Shown here in pieces: positions 1 through 14,082 of a stretch of DNA of 14,082 bases. The DNA comes from Candidatus Altarchaeum sp. GTDB lineage: Archaea > Altiarchaeota > Altiarchaeia > Altiarchaeales > Altiarchaeaceae. The DNA is taken from the NCBI GenBank assembly GCA_018260755.1, contig JAGTWP010000010.1, forward strand, positions 16,136 to 30,217. Reading direction: 5' to 3'. The notes under the pieces are model-generated. The model worked only from the letters and a program-made list of their open reading frames with translations. It was not told the origin of the DNA and ran no database searches. The position numbers and the translations under genes are program-made. How positions within the stretch are numbered: position 1 is the stretch's first letter; every line of letters begins with the position of its first letter.

Positions 1-77
1 TTACAAATAATATGATTTTAATATTATATCACATTACAAATAATATGATTATTAATATTATATCACATTACAAATAA
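1..77. repeat. AT-rich tandem repeat upstream of the first ATPase
   Basis: Two near-identical units of 33-34 bp (1-33 and 34-67) each start with TTACAAATAATATGAT and end with AATATTATATCACA. A third, truncated copy (TTACAAATAA) begins at 68. Within the first unit ATAATAT (7-13) and ATATTAT (21-27) can form a 7-bp stem. There are no unrelated spacers between units, so this is not a CRISPR array. It occupies the likely promoter region of the gene at 95. The repeat may continue to the left of the window. Confidence 0.7.
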
Positions 78-94
78 GGTAATAAGCAAATAAA

Positions 95-796
95 ATGCTA
101 TCGTATGAAGAAATTGTAAAAATAATAAGTGATTTGAACTTATGGGGAAGAGAACAGGAAATCGGAATTGAGCGGAAGGATTACCTTAAAACAATATCAG
201 AGTTTTCAGGAGCGAAAGAGGATGCCATCGTCATAGTTGGGATAAGAAGATCAGGAAAAACTTATTTAACTAAGCAATTTCTAAAAAATATTTCTGATAA
301 AACAAAAAAAGAACAAACACTTTATGTCAACTTTGAAGACCCAAAGTTAGATCCTCATCTTTCTCTTTCTTTACTTGATGAAATATACAGTGCGTATAGA
401 ACTTATATAAACAGGAATGATTTTGCGTGGATTGTGTTTGATGAAATTCAGAATATACCTATATGGGAAAAATGGGTCAGACTAATGCAGGAGAAAAAGG
501 AAAATGTAAAAATTTTACTTTCCGGATCTTCATCAAAATTACTAAGCGCAGAATTCTCCTCTGTTCTTACAGGAAGATACCTTAAAATAGAGGTGTTTCC
601 CATTTCCTTTAAAGAGTTTCTGTATTTCAATAAAGTTGAGTTTGAAAAGGACTACGATATACTTGTAAAAAGTGAGGAAATAAAAAGAAACCTTCACAAA
701 TATCTCAAATATGGCGGATTTCCCAAAGTTGCTCTTGAAGAAAACGAAAATTTAAAGAAAGAATACTTAACAGGACTTACGCAGTCCAGTATATAA
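95..796 (+). pseudogene. N-terminal part of AAA ATPase (AAA_14/DUF4143 type), gene split by insertion
   Basis: This is the ATPase half of a DUF4143-type AAA protein. The Walker A motif GIRRSGKT lies at residues 49-56, the Walker B motif WIVFDEIQN at about 112-120 (D116, E117), and a sensor-like LLSGSSS at 141-147, followed by the family signature GRYLKIEVFPISFKEF. The family-typical YGGFPKVALEENENLKKEYL (206-225) is then followed by an abrupt unrelated end, TGLTQSSI, and a TAA stop. These last residues are encoded by an inserted 71-bp element (772-842). The rest of the protein continues in the same frame from about 842 to 1501. Proteins of this type are common in archaea. Their cellular role is poorly defined, and defence or mobile-element contexts have been suggested. 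A separate truncated protein may still be made, but the intact two-domain protein cannot be made without stop readthrough. No clear Shine-Dalgarno decides the ATG at 95; AAGG at 75-78 is rather far away. Confidence 0.8.
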
Positions 797-842
797 AAAG
801 GTATTAAAATCCCTAAATTTATGTATGTTTTGCGTAAGTTCT
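772..842. mobile_element. 71-bp MITE-like insertion inside the ATPase gene
   Basis: The ends are 12-bp terminal inverted repeats: AGGACTTACGCA at 772-783 and TGCGTAAGTTCT at 831-842 (11 of 12 positions pair). The element is flanked by a direct repeat TACTTAA at 764-770 and 842-848, a likely 7-bp target duplication; its right copy shares one base with the inverted repeat, so the exact boundary is ambiguous by about 1 bp. Removing the 78 bp between the two direct repeats restores one open frame that reads EYLKEIFEGIVYRDIL, which matches the usual DUF4143-family junction. The insert brings the TAA at 794-796 and an in-frame ATG at 821. It encodes no transposase, so it would need an autonomous relative elsewhere. 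ACTTACGCA occurs again at 5600-5608. Confidence 0.85.
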
Positions 843-1501
843 ACTTAAAAGAAATTTTTGAGGGCATTGTCTATAGAGACATATTAGCAAGGCACAAGAT
901 TAAAGATGCCGGATTAGTTAAGGCAGTTGTGGAATTTGGAATCAATTATTTTTCGTCCTTAATGAGCGCCAACAAAATAAGAAATATTATTAGGGATATA
1001 TTTAAAAGACAGGTCTCTCCAAACACTATCCTAAATATACTAAAATACACAGAAGAAACTTATCTGTTATTTTTTGTTCCGATTTTTTCGTACAAAATTA
1101 AAGATCAAAAACTATATCCAAAGAAAATTTATTGTATTGACAGCGGATTAATAAATATTGTTTCGTTAAAATTTTCAGATGATTTTGGTAGGATTTATGA
1201 AAATATAGTGGCAATTGAACTAAAAAGAAGGATTAAAGAAATTTATTACTGGAAAGACAGCCAGCAAAGAGAGGTTGATTTTGTTGTTATAGAAGATAAA
1301 GAACCAAACCAATTAATTCAGGTCTGTTATGATGTTAAAAATCCGGAAACAAAAAAAAGAGAAACATTTGCACTGGTAAAAGCGAGCGAGGAATTAAAAT
1401 GCGAAAATTTATGGGTAATAACTTATGATTATGAAAACGAGGAAATTTTTGACGGAAAATTAATAAAATTTATTTCCTTGTGGAAATGGCTACTGATTTA
1501 G
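821..1501 (+). pseudogene. C-terminal part of the split AAA ATPase (DUF4143 domain)
   Basis: This is the second half of the gene that begins at 95, in the same reading frame. Genuine protein sequence resumes at about 842 (YLKEIFEGIVYRDILARHKI). The first residues after the ATG at 821 (MYVLRKF) come from the inserted element. Family landmarks include the YRDILARH segment, SPNTILNILKYTEETYL, the YPKKIYCIDSGL stretch, and the C-terminal nuclease-fold core GRIYENIVAIELKRR ... YYWKDSQQREVDFVV ... LIQVCYDV. DUF4143 is placed with PD-(D/E)XK-like domains (established family knowledge). If translated alone from ATG 821, the product would lack the P-loop. The last 16 nt overlap a small unassigned ORF at 1486-1632. 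Apart from the insertion the frame is undamaged, which suggests the insertion is recent. Confidence 0.75.
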
Positions 1502-7895: not shown

Positions 7896-9674
7896 ATGGC
7901 AAAATTTAAAAAAGCAAAAACAAGTATAAAATTTAAAACAGGGACAATTAAAACGGCAGGGACAATTAAAACGGCAATAATTGGAATTTTGTTTGTTTTG
8001 TTCGCATCTTATGTAAATGCGGACTGCGGATGTATTGGTGTAAATACAAATACAATCTATAAATGCGGGGATTATGTTAATGAAAGTTGCGTTTTAAATT
8101 GCAGTTTAACGTGCTCGGGAAATGGTTTAAAGGTAAATGCACATAACATTATATTAGATGGAAACGGATATAATTTAACAGGGTTGGAAATTAACTATTT
8201 AGGAAATAGTTATACAGTAGGAATTATCACAAATAATAAAGAAAATATCACCATAAAAAATTTTGAAATAAGAAATTTTAGCAACGGAATTATTCCTGTT
8301 CCTTTATCAATGGGAGGAAGTATGAAAAATTATACCATAATGAACAACAGAGTTCATCACATGTCAAGTTGCGGAATTTCTCTTTATGGAGCATCAGATA
8401 GTAAAATAATAAATAATACCTGTTATTCAATAAAACTTGACGGAATAGATTCAGCTCCGGGAAATAACAATGTAATAGAAAATAATACTTGTTACAACAA
8501 TAAAGGAGGAATTGGATTCTATGGGAGCACAACACAAAATAACACAATAAAAAACAACAACCTTTACAATAATAAATGGGGAATAATTCTTGGATGGGCT
8601 GGACCTAATCACAATAAAATTTTAAATAACACAATTTATAACAACACTTATTTTGGAATATATCTTTATTATGGTTCAAGCTTTAATGAAATTTATAATA
8701 ATACTATAAAGAACAATAAAAACGGAATTTTCTTAACAAAATGCCACCCCATAAAAAATGTTTGCTATCCGCAAAATGTAACAAATAATACAATCGCTTA
8801 TAACAAAATTTTAGGAAATTCCGAATACGGAATTTATATAAATTCATCTACGAACAATACAATCATTTCAAATAAAATTTGTAATAAAAATAGTATAGAT
8901 ATTGCAATATTTAACGGCACAATTAACGCAACTGAAAATTCAGGAGATAATAATTCCTGCACCTCCGGACTAAATTATAAAGATATTTCTGCGGGTTCTA
9001 ACTATACCTGCACCAACATTTGTAATTGTTCATCAAATTCAGAATGTTTAAGCAACAAATGTGTTGATGAAGGTGTCAATAAAGTTTGTAAATCAACGAC
9101 AAAAAATATATCTGTTGGATTAGTAATCAAATACCCGGACAATTTAACAATCACAAAATGTGTAAAAGTTCCTGAGTATGCAAACGGGAAAGAAATTTTA
9201 CAAGCATCGGGAATAGAAATCGATGGTTCTGATTATGAGGACTGGGGTTTTTTCTTGGATTGTATTAATAATACCTGTTCGCCATATGATTGGAGTTGGT
9301 ACTGGTCCTTCAATATGCACAAAATTGATGAAAACTATTGGACATATATGCCTGTTGGATTAGGCCCAGGGGGAACAAACAACGATTTCTGCTGGAAGAG
9401 AAATTATAATAGCGGCAATGGACATTATTGTGCTAATGACGGAGATGTTATTTTATTAAATGCAACAATTGGAGAGAGTGTAAAAAATTATCCTTGGTGT
9501 ACAGAAGATGACTTTAATAACGATGGGTTTGTTGACATATTTGATGCTGTAACAGGATTAGAATCTTTATCTGAAAGAAATTATTCTGAATATTCAGATG
9601 AATGCATCAGAAAAGAGCATATAGATTTATCTGAAATTTTAAAATTGATGGGAAAGATTGTGATTGAATTTTAA
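7896..9674 (+). CDS. Secreted beta-helix protein with transcobalamin-like (DUF4430) and dockerin-like C-terminus
   Basis: The 592-aa protein appears to be a surface protein. A long basic N-region (1-27) precedes a hydrophobic core (IIGILFVLFASYV) and a probable signal cleavage at VNA|DCG (after 42). Residues 45-355 form a NosD-like right-handed parallel beta-helix, with a CASH-type opening (NGLKVNAHNIILDGNGYNLTG) and many NNTIYNN...GIYLY turns. A Cys-rich linker (about 375-398, SECLSNKCV) follows. Residues 403-528 resemble the transcobalamin C-terminal-like DUF4430 fold: DYEDWGFFLDCI, WYWSFNMHKID and DGDVILLNAT. The tail begins with DFNNDGFVDIFDA (539-551), a calcium-loop pattern of dockerin type, and a degenerate second helix. 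The DUF4430 call fits the cobalamin genes downstream. Binding of B12 is inferred, and the helix could instead bind polysaccharide. Confidence 0.75.
   Translation: MAKFKKAKTSIKFKTGTIKTAGTIKTAIIGILFVLFASYVNADCGCIGVNTNTIYKCGDYVNESCVLNCSLTCSGNGLKVNAHNIILDGNGYNLTGLEINYLGNSYTVGIITNNKENITIKNFEIRNFSNGIIPVPLSMGGSMKNYTIMNNRVHHMSSCGISLYGASDSKIINNTCYSIKLDGIDSAPGNNNVIENNTCYNNKGGIGFYGSTTQNNTIKNNNLYNNKWGIILGWAGPNHNKILNNTIYNNTYFGIYLYYGSSFNEIYNNTIKNNKNGIFLTKCHPIKNVCYPQNVTNNTIAYNKILGNSEYGIYINSSTNNTIISNKICNKNSIDIAIFNGTINATENSGDNNSCTSGLNYKDISAGSNYTCTNICNCSSNSECLSNKCVDEGVNKVCKSTTKNISVGLVIKYPDNLTITKCVKVPEYANGKEILQASGIEIDGSDYEDWGFFLDCINNTCSPYDWSWYWSFNMHKIDENYWTYMPVGLGPGGTNNDFCWKRNYNSGNGHYCANDGDVILLNATIGESVKNYPWCTEDDFNNDGFVDIFDAVTGLESLSERNYSEYSDECIRKEHIDLSEILKLMGKIVIEF
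7941..7976 (+). repeat. 18-bp in-frame tandem duplication in the signal-peptide N-region
   Basis: The unit GGGACAATTAAAACGGCA occurs twice exactly (7941-7958 and 7959-7976), giving GTIKTAGTIKTA before the hydrophobic core. It lengthens the basic n-region of the signal peptide by six residues without breaking the frame. Confidence 0.85.
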
Positions 9675-9730
9675 ATAAAAGGTATTTGTTTATTTGCTTA
9701 AAAAATTAAGTGTGAAAACTATGAAAAAAT

Positions 9731-10026
9731 CACCTCATTTCATTCGGAGATTTACAAAATGCTTTGCATTTTGTAAGATTGAAAATCTGAATATTTTCAG
9801 TATTACAAAATGTTCCAAACATTTTGTAAGATTGAAAATCTGAATATTTTCAGTATTACAAAATGTTCCAAACATTTTGTAAGATTGAAATCAAAAGATT
9901 TCAGTATTTCAAAACTTTGGGTTTTGAAAATCACCTCGCTGTTGCTCGGAGATTTACAAAATGCTTTGCATTTTGTAAGATTGAAAATCTTGTAGATTTT
10001 CAGTATTTCAAAATTTCATTTTGAAA
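9731..10026 (+). repeat. Chain of twelve hairpins with alternating 3-nt linkers GAT and GTA
   Basis: This fills most of the 479-bp gap after the beta-helix gene. Hairpins in order: CACCTC...GGAG (9731-9749), TTACAAAATGC/GCATTTTGTAA (9752-9776), TGAAAAT/ATTTTCA (9780-9799), TTACAAAATGTT/AACATTTTGTAA (9803-9829), the last two repeated exactly 53 bp later (9833-9852, 9856-9882), TGAAATC/GATTTCA (9886-9903), TTTCAAAAC/GTTTTGAAA (9907-9929), CACCTC...GGAG again (9932-9951), TTACAAAATGC type (9954-9978), TGAAAATC/GATTTTCA (9982-10002) and TTTCAAAAT/ATTTTGAAA (10006-10026). Linkers are GAT before each TGAAA stem and GTA after it. Stems differ in sequence but stay paired, as expected if structure is selected. 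It could be a structured RNA, a DNA recombination or termination element, or a dispersed repeat family. Confidence 0.85.
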
Positions 10027-10153
10027 ATAACTACAAAATCAAATATGACTATGTAAAAATCCAATTATCTAAACAAACATGATTGAAAAAATAAAATTAT
10101 CATAAATATAAAAATTTATAAAAATACAAAAATAAAAATTTATAAAATACAAA
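10027..10153 (+). promoter_or_regulatory. AT-rich leader and candidate promoter of the cobalamin operon
   Basis: Two tandem near-copies of AAAAATTTATAAAATACAAA (10110-10130 with one extra A, and 10134-10153) run directly into the GTG start at 10154. TTTATAAA inside the first copy is 32-39 nt upstream of the start, a plausible TATA box for a short-leader transcript. No cobalamin riboswitch-like conserved box was found here. Confidence 0.35.
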
Positions 10154-12190
10154 GTGAGAAAAATTTTACCTTTATTGTTTGGAATTTTCTTTGTATGTTT
10201 TTCTTTTCAGATTGTCTTTGGAGAAAATATAACCTGTCAAGAAGGAACATATTTAAAAAACAATTCGTGTGTCAATTATGAAAGAGTTATTTCATTAGCT
10301 CCATCAATAACCGAAATAATTTATGCAATAAACGGACAAGATAATCTTATAGGAGTTACAATCTTTTGTAATTACCCCGAAGATGCAAAAAGCAAAACAA
10401 AAATTGGCGGCTATGTTACGCCAAGTATTGAAAAAATAATTTCATTAAATCCGGATTTAGTTTTTGCTCATGATTTAACAGACCCTGATGATATTAAATT
10501 ATTACAGGACGCAAATATTACTACGATTATAATCAATATCTCTTCCAATATTGAAGGCATATACTATAATATGAGAACAATTGCTAAATATTTGGGAAAG
10601 GACTCTGAAGGTGAAAATTTAATAAACAATATGAAAGAAAGAATAGAAAAAATAAAGAAAGTAAAGAGTGAATTAATATTCTCATCTCCAAAAATGGCAC
10701 AGATTGTCGAGGCAGACCCTCTATGGGTGTCTGGAGGTAATACATTTATAGATAATATAATTACAACCGTCGGAGGGATAAATGTTTATTCTGATATTTA
10801 CAGATGGCAACCTGTTTCCGTTGAAACACTTATCACAAGAGACCCGGATATTATAATTGCTTCTTCTGGATATATGGGAGAGTATAATTATATATTAAAT
10901 AATCCTAATTTTAAAACTTTAAAGGCAGTAAAAAATAACGATGTCTATAATATAAATGAAGATATTATTTCAAGAGATGGTCCAAGAGTAATTGATGCTT
11001 TGGAGAGTGTTATGGGAATGATCATTTCATATCAATATAAACACATCCCGAAATATTGTATGGATGATTCCGATTGCACATCTGGAAAATGTGATTCTTC
11101 AATTCATATATGTTTTAAATTTAAATTAAATAATGAAAGTTGCGTATTTGATAAAGAATGTATATGCGAGAACTGCGAAAATGGTGTATGTAAGGAAAAA
11201 AATTCTGCAGGCAGTTTAGGAATAAGCAAAAGTTATGGAAGTGGCGGAAATTATGGAGGCGGAGGAGGAACATCGTCTGTCAGATATGTTGATAGTAGTG
11301 AAAATATACCTGTGAATGTAGAAGAAAATACATTTTCATCAGAAATTTTTAACATTTCAGAAATTTTTGGTCTGAAACAAACATTAAATTTGGGAGGAAA
11401 TTTTAAGGAGACAGAAATAACAATAAAAGTTAAAAACGAAACAAGGAAATTTAAATCAGATGAAAAAGGAGATATAACTTTAACAATTCCTGATTATGGA
11501 ATTGCAGAAATAACAATTTCAAAATCCGGATTTAAAAATTTCACAAAGACAATTAATGTTTATGCCGGAGCTTTAAACATAACAAAGATTTCGGGCGGGG
11601 AATACGGAAACGAATTTAAATTTAAAGTAACAACAAAGGATGGAATTCCTGTAAAAAATGCAGAAGTTGAAATTTACGGAGAAAAATTGAAGACAGATGC
11701 AAACGGGATTGTTAGAACAACAATTAAAACAATACGGGCAGGTTTAGAAGCATCTGTATTAGCAAATAACTATAAAAGTTCAAGCATTTCATTTGATGTC
11801 CAAGCAATAGGAAAGCTAACTATTAATGCCCCTGAAAAAGTAAAGCAAGGAGATACAATTACAATTACATTGATGGATGAAAACAAAAAGCCAGTGCCGA
11901 ATGCGAAGGTTACAATTAACGGTGTTGAACATACCGCAGATACTAATGGAAAGATTGAATATAATGTTACAACAACATCCCTTATACTTAAGGCAGAAAT
12001 GGAAGGATATATATCATCAGAGCAAATTTCAGTTGTGGTTGAAAAAGAGACTGCGATTGAAAATAAAACAACACATAATGAAACAAAAAAAGATACATCA
12101 AATGATAATTTGTTTTCACTTCAAAATTTAATTATTGCTGTAATTTTAATTATTGCCTTAATAATTTTCTTAAAATGGAGGAAAAAGTAG
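10154..12190 (+). CDS. BtuF-like cobalamin-binding protein with Ig-like stalk and C-terminal membrane anchor
   Basis: The 678-aa exported protein begins with a signal peptide (1-23, MRKILPLLFGIFFVCFSFQIVFG). Residues 42-295 are a periplasmic-binding domain of the BtuF/FhuD class: RVISLAPSITEIIYAI, SIEKIISLNPDLVFAH, ADPLWVSGGNTFIDNI with VGGINVYSD, and VETLITRDPDIIIAS. A Cys-rich segment (302-346, DSDCTSGKC and ECICENCENGVC) and a Gly/Ser linker (353-374) follow. Two or three Ig-like carboxypeptidase-regulatory-type domains span about 395-630 (PVKNAEVEIYGEKLKTDANG, PVPNAKVTINGVEHTADTNG). A C-terminal TM helix (658-674) is followed by KWRKK. It probably captures corrinoid at the cell surface for an importer; BtuC/BtuD are not in the window. 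Iron-siderophore binding is the main alternative, but the adjacent cobA favours cobalamin. Start GTG, set by the signal peptide. It overlaps the next gene by 16 nt. Confidence 0.85.
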   Translation: MRKILPLLFGIFFVCFSFQIVFGENITCQEGTYLKNNSCVNYERVISLAPSITEIIYAINGQDNLIGVTIFCNYPEDAKSKTKIGGYVTPSIEKIISLNPDLVFAHDLTDPDDIKLLQDANITTIIINISSNIEGIYYNMRTIAKYLGKDSEGENLINNMKERIEKIKKVKSELIFSSPKMAQIVEADPLWVSGGNTFIDNIITTVGGINVYSDIYRWQPVSVETLITRDPDIIIASSGYMGEYNYILNNPNFKTLKAVKNNDVYNINEDIISRDGPRVIDALESVMGMIISYQYKHIPKYCMDDSDCTSGKCDSSIHICFKFKLNNESCVFDKECICENCENGVCKEKNSAGSLGISKSYGSGGNYGGGGGTSSVRYVDSSENIPVNVEENTFSSEIFNISEIFGLKQTLNLGGNFKETEITIKVKNETRKFKSDEKGDITLTIPDYGIAEITISKSGFKNFTKTINVYAGALNITKISGGEYGNEFKFKVTTKDGIPVKNAEVEIYGEKLKTDANGIVRTTIKTIRAGLEASVLANNYKSSSISFDVQAIGKLTINAPEKVKQGDTITITLMDENKKPVPNAKVTINGVEHTADTNGKIEYNVTTTSLILKAEMEGYISSEQISVVVEKETAIENKTTHNETKKDTSNDNLFSLQNLIIAVILIIALIIFLKWRKK

Positions 12191-13165: not shown

Positions 13166-13726
13166 ATGGAAAACGGCTTGACACATATTTATACGGGAGA
13201 CGGAAAAGGAAAAACAACAGCAGCAATAGGATTAGCAGTAAGAGCAAAAGCTCGTAACTTAAATGTTTGCTGGATTTCCTTTCATAAAGCTCTTGAAAAA
13301 CCACTCTACTCCGAAGGAGAATATAAAATTTTAAAAGAAATAGGAATTGAATTGTACAATTTTGTAAAGTATTGTGAGTTTAAAAATCCTTATAAAAGCG
13401 AGGAAGAATTGTTTGAACATGAAAGAAAGGACTGCCTAAATGCAATAAAATTTATCAAGGAAAAAATTTATACTCACAGTGAAAATTATGACATCTTAAT
13501 TTTGGATGAAATTTTGATTTCTTTGAGAGAAGGATACTTAAACGTTCATGAAATTCTTGATTTGGTCAATTCAAAACCGAAAACACTGGAATTAATTATC
13601 ACAGGAAGGTGTTCTGATGAAAAATTAAAAGAAATTATTGAAGTTGTAGATTATGTCAGTAAAATTGAAAAAATAAAACATCCTTTTGATAAGGGTATTG
13701 AAAGAAGGAAAGGAATAGAATATTAA
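13166..13726 (+). CDS. cobA: Cob(I)alamin adenosyltransferase (CobA/BtuR)
   Basis: The enzyme transfers adenosyl from ATP to the reduced cobalt of corrinoids, giving adenosylated corrinoid in the cytoplasm. The 186-aa protein matches the family in length and motifs: P-loop GDGKGKTT (11-18) with AAIGLAVRAKARNLNV, Walker B-like LILDEI (111-116), the segment SLREGYLNVHEILDLVNSKP, the ITGRCSDE motif (145-152) and the conserved end IKHPFDKGIERRKGIEY. An 11-nt gap separates it from the radical SAM gene, so it is the last gene of the operon. A tandem repeat derived from its last codons follows directly. The ATG at 13166 places the P-loop at the usual distance from the N-terminus. Confidence 0.93.
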   Translation: MENGLTHIYTGDGKGKTTAAIGLAVRAKARNLNVCWISFHKALEKPLYSEGEYKILKEIGIELYNFVKYCEFKNPYKSEEELFEHERKDCLNAIKFIKEKIYTHSENYDILILDEILISLREGYLNVHEILDLVNSKPKTLELIITGRCSDEKLKEIIEVVDYVSKIEKIKHPFDKGIERRKGIEY

Positions 13727-13916
13727 AAGAAGGAAGAATGGAATATTAAAAGAATAGGATATTAAAAGAATAGGATATTAAAAGAAGGAAGAATGGAATA
13801 TTAAAAGAATAGGATATTAAAAGAATAGAATATTAAAATGCATAAGGAGAAAGGAATAGGATATTAAAAGAATAGGATATTAAAATGCATAAGGAGAAAG
13901 GAATAGGATATTAAAA
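13727..13916 (+). repeat. Minisatellite built from the 3' end of cobA
   Basis: ATATTAAAA recurs ten times, counting the copy that contains the cobA stop. Spacers are of three kinds: GAATAGG/GAATAGA (16-bp unit), GAAGGAAGAATGGA (23-bp unit) and TGCATAAGGAGAAAGGAATAGG (31-bp unit). Larger periods of 55 bp (ATG 13738 to 13793) and 47 bp (ATG 13838 to 13885) are visible. Several units repeat the final codons of cobA almost exactly (AAAGGAATAGRATATTAA, that is KGI(E/G)Y-stop), and four contain a tiny ATG frame (MEY twice, MHKEKGIGY twice). It lies between cobA and the right-hand hairpin array. Confidence 0.85.
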
Positions 13917-13935
13917 GTAACTATTCAGAGGGTAT

Positions 13936-14078
13936 TTTCAAAATGAAATTTTGAAATACTGAAAATTATAAATTTTTAATCTTTAAAAATCTGCAAGATT
14001 TTTAAATACTGAAAATATTCAGATTTTCAATCTTACAAAATGCAAAGCATTTTGTAAATCTCCGAACGAAGTGAGGTG
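13936..14078 (-). repeat. Second hairpin-chain array, inverted relative to the first
   Basis: On the plus strand the hairpins are TTTCAAAAT/ATTTTGAAA (13936-13956), an imperfect TGAAAAT/ATTTTTA (13960-13978), TTTAAAAATC/GATTTTTAAA (13982-14006), TGAAAAT/ATTTTCA (14010-14029), TTACAAAATGC/GCATTTTGTAA (14033-14057) and CTCC...GAGGTG (14060-14078). Linkers are TAC, ATC, TAC, ATC, which are the complements of GTA and GAT in the first array. The outer 70 bp match the outer end of the first array nearly base for base in inverted orientation, except inside the CACCTC hairpin where changes are paired. The array reaches the window edge and may continue. Confidence 0.85.
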
Positions 14079-14082
14079 ACAA

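What the first reader, a model, noticed from the sequence alone, without database searches (positions are those of the whole stretch)
9731..10026. Hairpin chain with fixed 3-nt linkers and compensatory stem changes
Twelve consecutive small hairpins follow one another with linkers that are exactly GAT before, and GTA after, every TGAAA-type stem. Stem pairs change together: TGC/GCA versus TGTT/AACA, AAAC/GTTT versus AAAT/ATTT. In the CACCTC hairpin the inner pairs are AT/AT, GC/GC and AC/GT in the three copies of the window. The order is TTACAAAA-type stem, GAT, TGAAA stem, GTA, next stem. I know of no described element with this architecture. It could be a repetitive structured RNA, a folded single-stranded DNA substrate for a transposase or recombinase, or a bidirectional transcription stop. 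Linker and pairing facts are read directly; function is inference.
Basis: partly seen in the sequence, partly recalled or inferred. Interest (0 to 1): 0.8.

Follow-up and report, generated by a model that had tools for sequence, protein, structure and literature searches.

The report
Nested mobile DNA hairpins in archaea
The string of twelve small hairpins is not one structured RNA but a pile-up of tiny two-hairpin mobile DNA units, sitting inside a short transposon remnant of the archaeon Candidatus Altarchaeum; some of these units have jumped by themselves, one even into the middle of an enzyme gene without breaking its reading frame.

Summary
In detail: twelve hairpins at 9730-10026, with every TGAAA-type stem preceded by GAT and followed by GTA. 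The feature extends further, to a 399-nt element at 9682-10080 with terminal inverted repeats. It is a MITE-like element ("T1", 8-bp target duplications in its best-preserved copies) of Ca. Altarchaeum. A second family ("T3", window 13917-14082, cut by the contig end) shares its ends with a decayed IS66-family transposon.

The hairpin chain is cargo made of two kinds of small two-hairpin unit. Y is stem-GAT-stem-GTA, about 50-57 nt. X is a CACCTC hairpin plus an ATTTn..nAAAT hairpin, about 41-46 nt. The window's twelve hairpins parse as two X units holding three and one Y units. Both units move on their own: orthologous filled and empty sites in related genomes show a bare X+X+Y chain in a tRNA spacer, two X units elsewhere, and one Y unit inserted in frame (18 codons) in an HdrA-like gene. 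Stems covary across 58 distinct Y units.

The enzyme that moves X and Y was not found: no Y1 transposase was detected in four genomes of the genus. Closest kinds are BOX elements, Rickettsia palindromic elements and PATEs. I rate it a new variant of a known kind.

The parts
9682..10080 (+). T1 element (MITE-like shell): left TIR GTATTTGTTTATTTGCTTAAAAAATTAA, right end CCAATTATCTAAACAAACAT
   Evidence: matches 40 T1 ends genome-wide; paired copies 139-659 nt with 8-bp duplications in the best-preserved copies. This copy's own duplication is not recognisable (4/8)
9682..9709 (+). T1 left terminal repeat
10052..10080 (-). T1 right terminal repeat (mutated at its tip)
9730..9930 (+). X unit no. 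1 (CACCTC hairpin 9730-9750 and closing stem 9907-9929) holding three Y units
   Evidence: parsed by comparison with X units without Y (C32:4419-4705)
9752..9802 (+). Y unit a: stem TTACAAAATGCTTTGCATTTTGTAA, GAT, stem TGAAAATCTGAATATTTTCA, GTA
9803..9855 (+). Y unit b (53 nt)
9856..9906 (+). Y unit c (51 nt; short second stem TGAAATCAAAAGATTTCA)
9931..10028 (+). X unit no. 2 (CACCTCGC hairpin 9931-9952 and closing stem 10006-10026) holding one Y unit
9954..10005 (+). Y unit d: stem, GAT, TGAAAATCTTGTAGATTTTCA, GTA
13917..14082 (-). T3 element (IS66-type ends GTAACTATTCAG), with Y and X units, truncated by the contig end at 14082
   Evidence: contig G000:C43 ends at 30217 = window 14082

Best explanation
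The hairpin chain is an assembly of two kinds of tiny (about 41-57 nt), two-hairpin mobile DNA unit (X and Y), nested in each other and carried inside a MITE-like element (T1) of Candidatus Altarchaeum. SHOWN: the T1 and T3 shells have inverted ends and make 8-bp target duplications; T3 ends match a decayed IS66-family transposon; X and Y units occur inside the shells, inside each other and alone; orthologous sites in related genomes are filled in one and empty in another, so units or short chains do insert on their own. INFERRED: the shells are moved in trans by transposases (IS66 type for T3, unknown for T1). INFERRED, most likely: X and Y are moved as folded single-stranded DNA by an enzyme that recognises the hairpins and short single-stranded tags (GAT/GTA) rather than the stem sequence (this step alone about 0.4). 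That would explain fixed linkers, free but paired stems, and the lack of a clear target duplication. Because each Y unit ends in GTA, which is also its target, new units can land beside old ones, and tandem slippage then adds identical 53-nt copies.
For: TIRs and target duplications: 24 of 38 T3 and 5 of 12 T1 pairs have >=7/8 flank identity vs 0.7% at random. IS66 link: L159 (G001:C134) PF03050 E 4e-30, 1.7 kb between GTAACTATTCAG ends; C4:1435-1795 of the own genome looks like its internal deletion. T3 shells exist empty (14 of 38) or with modules at independent sites in 7 other combinations. Orthologous filled/empty sites: a bare X+X+Y chain between two tRNA genes in G003 (CTCTTTATTT..ATGCGGGAG) vs nothing in G000; two X units (about 90 nt) in G000 C49 vs nothing in G001. 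HdrA-like gene: Y unit of 54 nt after GTA in G003 (18 aa TENLYDFQSLKNPQDFLN), empty in G001; an older in-frame unit in both; three orthologues from outside the genus lack both. Linker fixity and covariation.
Against: No Y1 transposase (PF01797) in any of the four genus genomes; TnpB occurs in G003 and G001 only and not next to the Y junctions that were listed. The Y2 search is uninformative (no control rang). Genomes are incomplete (65-87%) and break at repeats, so a missing enzyme is weak evidence either way. The window's own T1 copy has no clear target duplication. GTA around Y could be a 3-bp duplication or microhomology. Stem covariation can also arise from palindrome self-correction without any enzyme.
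Confidence: 0.8

Rival explanations
1. No dedicated enzyme: X and Y spread by replication template switching at 3-nt microhomology (GTA) and by hairpin slippage, and the stems stay perfect because palindromes correct themselves (one arm templates the other).
For: Identical neighbouring 53-nt units in C53:16592-17250; inner stem parts shared between the two hairpins of a unit more than chance overall and in G002 (LCS 6.44 vs 5.26, p 0.0005), though not in G000 (p 0.95); no HUH transposase found.
Against: Borders are strict: permuted linkers give 0 units, whereas microhomology switching should use many short words. Single units reach unrelated loci such as hdrA and a tRNA spacer.
Confidence: 0.3
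2. X/Y are miniature IS200/IS605 (HUH) elements: left-end plus right-end hairpins without a core, like the 52-bp terminal-only PATEs of Haloquadratum, moved by a Y1 transposase since lost or unassembled.
For: Two subterminal hairpins, no long duplication, insertion next to a short word; 52-bp PATE precedent (PMC3119063); intact TnpB genes in G003 and one in G001.
Against: No Y1 match in four genomes; G000 and G002, rich in Y, have no TnpB; no listed Y junction flanks a TnpB (list incomplete).
Confidence: 0.3
3. Functional structured RNA: the chain is transcribed and kept for a regulatory or structural role.
For: Strong fold, covariation; mismatches in distinct stems lean to G.U over A.C (10 vs 4).
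Against: Copy number of hairpins varies from none to many at homologous positions; location in coding sequence; no Rfam match.
Confidence: 0.07
4. Bidirectional transcription terminator.
For: AT-rich hairpins in intergenic DNA.
Against: No enrichment between convergent genes; present between tandem genes and inside an ORF.
Confidence: 0.04

Closest known systems
BOX elements of Streptococcus pneumoniae (PMC3049150)
   Same: Composite short repeat, 67-637 bp, MITE-like features, outer modules with a variable number of tandem inner modules (boxB) that fold independently.
   Different: Here the inner modules also occur and insert alone outside the shell, two unrelated modules nest in each other, and two shell families with different ends share them. 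No BOX sequence was compared.
Rickettsia palindromic elements (RPE; described in PMC10969869)
   Same: Short palindromic units inserted in frame in protein genes as well as outside them.
   Different: RPEs are about 150 bp; Y is about 54 nt with two stems, mostly in arrays inside MITEs; only one gene (two units) seen here.
PATEs and SMRs of Haloquadratum walsbyi (PMC3119063)
   Same: Archaeal transposase-free elements with terminal palindromes (PATE), no target duplication, often inserted into other mobile elements (SMR-A); a 52-bp terminal-only form exists.
   Different: PATE ends match IS605-type transposons; no such partner was found for X/Y. X/Y form long regular chains.
IS66-family MITEs
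   Same: T3 ends start with GTAA, 8-bp duplication, and match a decayed IS66 element in the same genus.
   Different: Interior is filled with X/Y hairpin units unrelated to the IS.
REP / BIME with RAYT (GTAG- and CGTC-tagged repeats, PMC3733652)
   Same: Small palindromes with a short unpaired tag.
   Different: Tags are GTA/GAT before AT-rich stems, not GTAG or CGTC; no RAYT-type transposase detected.

Membership tests
MITE (T1 and T3 shells) | terminal inverted repeats and short non-coding body | tested here: met
MITE (T1 and T3 shells) | target-site duplication | tested here: met
   8 bp; 24/38 T3 and 5/12 T1 pairs >=7/8 identical; the window copy itself not recognisable
MITE of IS66 (T3) | ends shared with an autonomous IS66 element | tested here: met
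   L159: PF03050 between GTAACTATTCAG ends, 18-nt match to T3L; that copy has stop codons
MITE of IS66 (T1, the window's element) | ends shared with an IS66 element | tested here: inconclusive
   no transposase found between T1 ends; a 1.38-kb T1 pair in G001:C3 was not read; PF03050, PF01609, PF01610 give no match there
IS200/IS605-derived PATE (X, Y) | terminal palindromes and no long target duplication | tested here: met
IS200/IS605-derived PATE (X, Y) | ends shared with an IS605-type transposon | tested here: not met
   no PF01797 in the genus; listed Y junctions not beside TnpB (TnpB flanks themselves not read)
REP/RAYT | GTAG or CGTC tag | tested here: not met
   tags are GAT and GTA followed by T
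REP/RAYT | RAYT transposase in the genome | tested here: not met
   PF01797 0 of 4 genomes, 5 of 14 controls ring
Rickettsia palindromic element | in-frame insertion in protein genes | tested here: met
   HdrA-like gene, two units
Rickettsia palindromic element | sequence relationship to a described RPE family | not tested
   no RPE sequence was compared
BOX element | boxA/boxB/boxC sequences | not tested
   no BOX sequence was compared
Rfam RNA family | covariance-model match | tested here: not met
   no match at gathering threshold

The most novel reading that the evidence does not exclude
X and Y are a new class of minimal mobile DNA: about 41-57 nt double hairpins recognised by structure and three-base tags rather than by sequence, moved by an unidentified enzyme of Altarchaeum, and able to add in-frame peptides to host enzymes.
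Probability: 0.25. Interest if true: 0.8.

Novelty: new variant of a known kind. Interest (0 to 1): 0.52.

Why it matters
It appears to be an undescribed set of small mobile palindromes in an uncultivated archaeal lineage, present in hundreds of places across the genus and at many of the contig ends in the assembly. It gives concrete insertions of ~50-nt units, including one that added 18 residues to an HdrA-like redox enzyme while the gene stayed open. If the stems are recognised by shape, it would be a very small transposition substrate whose sequence can drift freely, and it makes the question 'what moves palindromic repeats that have no transposase' testable.

Tried and rejected
Known RNA family: none. 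CRISPR-like reading: rejected, the repeats are palindromes that vary together and have no spacers. Y1 HUH transposase (PF01797): none in four genomes. ISL3 (PF01610): none. DDE_Tnp_1 (PF01609): present in relatives, but not between T1 ends at the one long pair. Y2 (PF04986): uninformative, no control rang. TnpB: in G003 and G001 but not beside listed Y junctions. Duplicated transposase ORFs in the own genome: none recognised by self-BLAST. Viral contigs: no exact match to a Y-unit pattern. Terminator role: no orientation bias. RNA-strand test by wobble type (10 G.T vs 4 A.C in distinct stems): too few to decide. First genome contigs pattern scan found nothing. After that, the genome search was used for questions of presence and position, an orthologue search, still returned 12 loci, and their hdrA parts were used. 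TnpB flanks and the 1.38-kb T1 pair were left unread.

Full report
WHAT IS THERE. The twelve hairpins lie at 9730-10026, and the GAT/GTA linker rule holds for all four TGAAA-type stems. Folding energy is 11 standard deviations below shuffles for RNA and DNA. Being built of palindromes, the region should fold similarly on either strand (only the + strand was folded).

HOST. The window is contig C43:16136-30217 of a 1.32-Mb genome in 78 contigs (31.8% GC over the 98% read). One genus member, G003, has a 34,500-base contig C99 that matches record JAGWDQ010000099.1, Candidatus Altarchaeum sp. HURL_140, so the genus is Ca. Altarchaeum. A 16-nt junction of the chain (TTTTGTAAGATTGAAA) has 140 matches within two mismatches in the own genome against 4 for the reversed control. 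With one mismatch it is repeated only in the four genomes of this genus, with one or two matches in four of the other 57 relatives. The related junction TTTTTAAAGATTGAAA has 209 matches in G003 and 94 in G001.

THE SHELL. Comparing copies shows that the chain is inside an element with terminal inverted repeats, T1: GTATTTGTTTAGCTGCTTAAAAAATTAA at one end and GTATTTGTTTAGCTAATTGGATTTTACTG at the other, 139-659 nt long in this genome. The window copy is 9682-10080. A second family, T3, has GTAACTATTCAGCCACCC and GTAACTATTCAGAGGGTA ends; its copy in the window starts at 13917 and runs off the contig. Both leave 8-bp target duplications: 24 of 38 T3 pairs and 5 of 12 T1 pairs are at least 7/8 identical, against 0.7% for random pairs. 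For the window's own T1 copy the flanks do not match (4/8). A decayed IS66-family transposase in G001 lies between two GTAACTATTCAG ends 1.7 kb apart. A 361-nt T3 element in the own genome has the same terminal stretches and looks like an internal deletion of such an IS. So T3 is best read as an IS66-type MITE. The partner of T1 was not found.

THE BRICKS. Shell copies differ by whole modules. The 101-nt T3 form is empty. Others carry (i) X units, e.g. GAAATTTT|CGCAGG against GAAATTTT-ACGCTCACTTCGTTCGTGTATTTTCAAACAAGTTTGAAAAT-CGCAGG, and (ii) Y units, e.g. CAGGTA|AATTTTTG against CAGGTA-TTAAAAAATATTTGAAATATTTTTTAA-GAT-TGAAAATTTATTTATAAATTTTCA-GTA-AATTTTTG. Eight combinations of module occupancy occur among 38 T3 copies, so modules come and go independently. 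The window's twelve hairpins parse as X with three Y units nested in it, followed by X with one Y unit.

Y units number 105 in the held DNA, 58 distinct, always GTA-stem-GAT-stem-GTA; permuted linkers give none. The first Y of each X in the window follows GAT rather than GTA, so the entry site is not strictly GTA. Equal-length stems show paired changes beyond shuffles and slid controls. Related sequences weaken the shuffle control, but the changes include both-side swaps such as CG/UA, AU/CG and GC/AU.

INDEPENDENT MOVEMENT. Comparisons between genus members give filled and empty orthologous sites. First, between two tRNA genes G003 has a bare chain X+X+Y with no T1/T3 ends, where G000 has CTCTTATTT|ATGCGGGAG; the right flank is 99% identical. 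Second, G000 C49 has two X units where G001 has none. Third, G000 C58 has a 244-nt T3 element where the blastn flanks nearly abut in G002 (the realignment was poor there). Fourth, an HdrA-like gene in G003 has a 54-nt Y unit after GTA, in frame (18 residues TENLYDFQSLKNPQDFLN), while G001 is empty there; both carry an older in-frame Y unit (TENSLGIFNLKKTTSFFN in G003). Orthologues in three genomes outside the genus lack both, so gain, not loss, is the simplest account for hdrA. For the other sites direction rests on the empty side being clean.

MECHANISM. Shown: shells transpose with 8-bp duplications; units or short chains insert without the shells; stems stay paired while sequence changes; linkers are fixed. 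Inferred: a nuclease or transposase recognises folded single-stranded hairpins plus the GAT/GTA tags, as HUH enzymes do in IS200/IS605 (general knowledge of that family). Because Y ends in GTA and enters after GTA, arrays can grow by repeated entry; identical 53-nt neighbours suggest slippage as well. No Y1 transposase was found in the four genomes, although they are 65-87% complete and break at repeats. A rival without enzyme, template switching at short homology with palindrome self-correction, is kept at 0.3. It is weakened by the strict borders.

NOT SUPPORTED. A dedicated RNA (no Rfam match; hairpin number varies between copies) and a terminator role (29 tandem, 9 convergent, 8 divergent, close to intergenic length shares of about 61/18/21%). 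The elements are not found in the viral collection with the pattern used.

COMPARISON. Modular composites of this general design are known as BOX elements (67-637 bp, variable number of boxB; PMC3049150), in-frame palindromic insertions as RPEs (PMC10969869), and very short palindrome-ended archaeal elements as PATEs (52-bp form; PMC3119063). The combination of two nested two-hairpin units with fixed three-base linkers, their use of two different MITE shells and their solo jumps was not found in the papers searched; the library holds only open-licence papers.

Noticed in passing
window 1-77: 2.3 copies of a 34-nt AT-rich repeat TTACAAATAATATGATTATTAATATTATATCACA directly upstream of an ORF.
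   Followed up: no
window 13709-13917: A-rich minisatellite (AAAAGAATAGGATATT units, 16/39/55-nt periods) directly abutting the T3 element.
   Followed up: no
G000 C2, C7, C63 (L001, L002, L027): A further repeat, possibly with ends CGCTCATATAC / CGCTCTTATGTTGATTTTCA, that sits next to X/Y chains.
   Followed up: partly
L139:6200-6500, L145:100-420, L169:5890-6100: Possible further element family in relatives with GGTGMTCA.. and ..GGGTCAGCACC ends, also carrying Y units.
   Followed up: no
G003 contigs C13, C24, C42, C69, C70, C84, C109, C119: Eight TnpB (PF07282) matches, open frames 400-540 aa, without any detectable Y1 TnpA in the genus.
   Followed up: partly
window 95-1501: An ATPase-like gene split by a stop at 794-796 into two ORFs (95-796 and 821-1501), a likely pseudogene.
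   Followed up: no
window 7896-9674 and 10154-12190: Genes flanking the T1 element: a NosD/beta-helix protein and a Peripla_BP_2 protein; further on radical SAM and CobO genes.
   Followed up: partly
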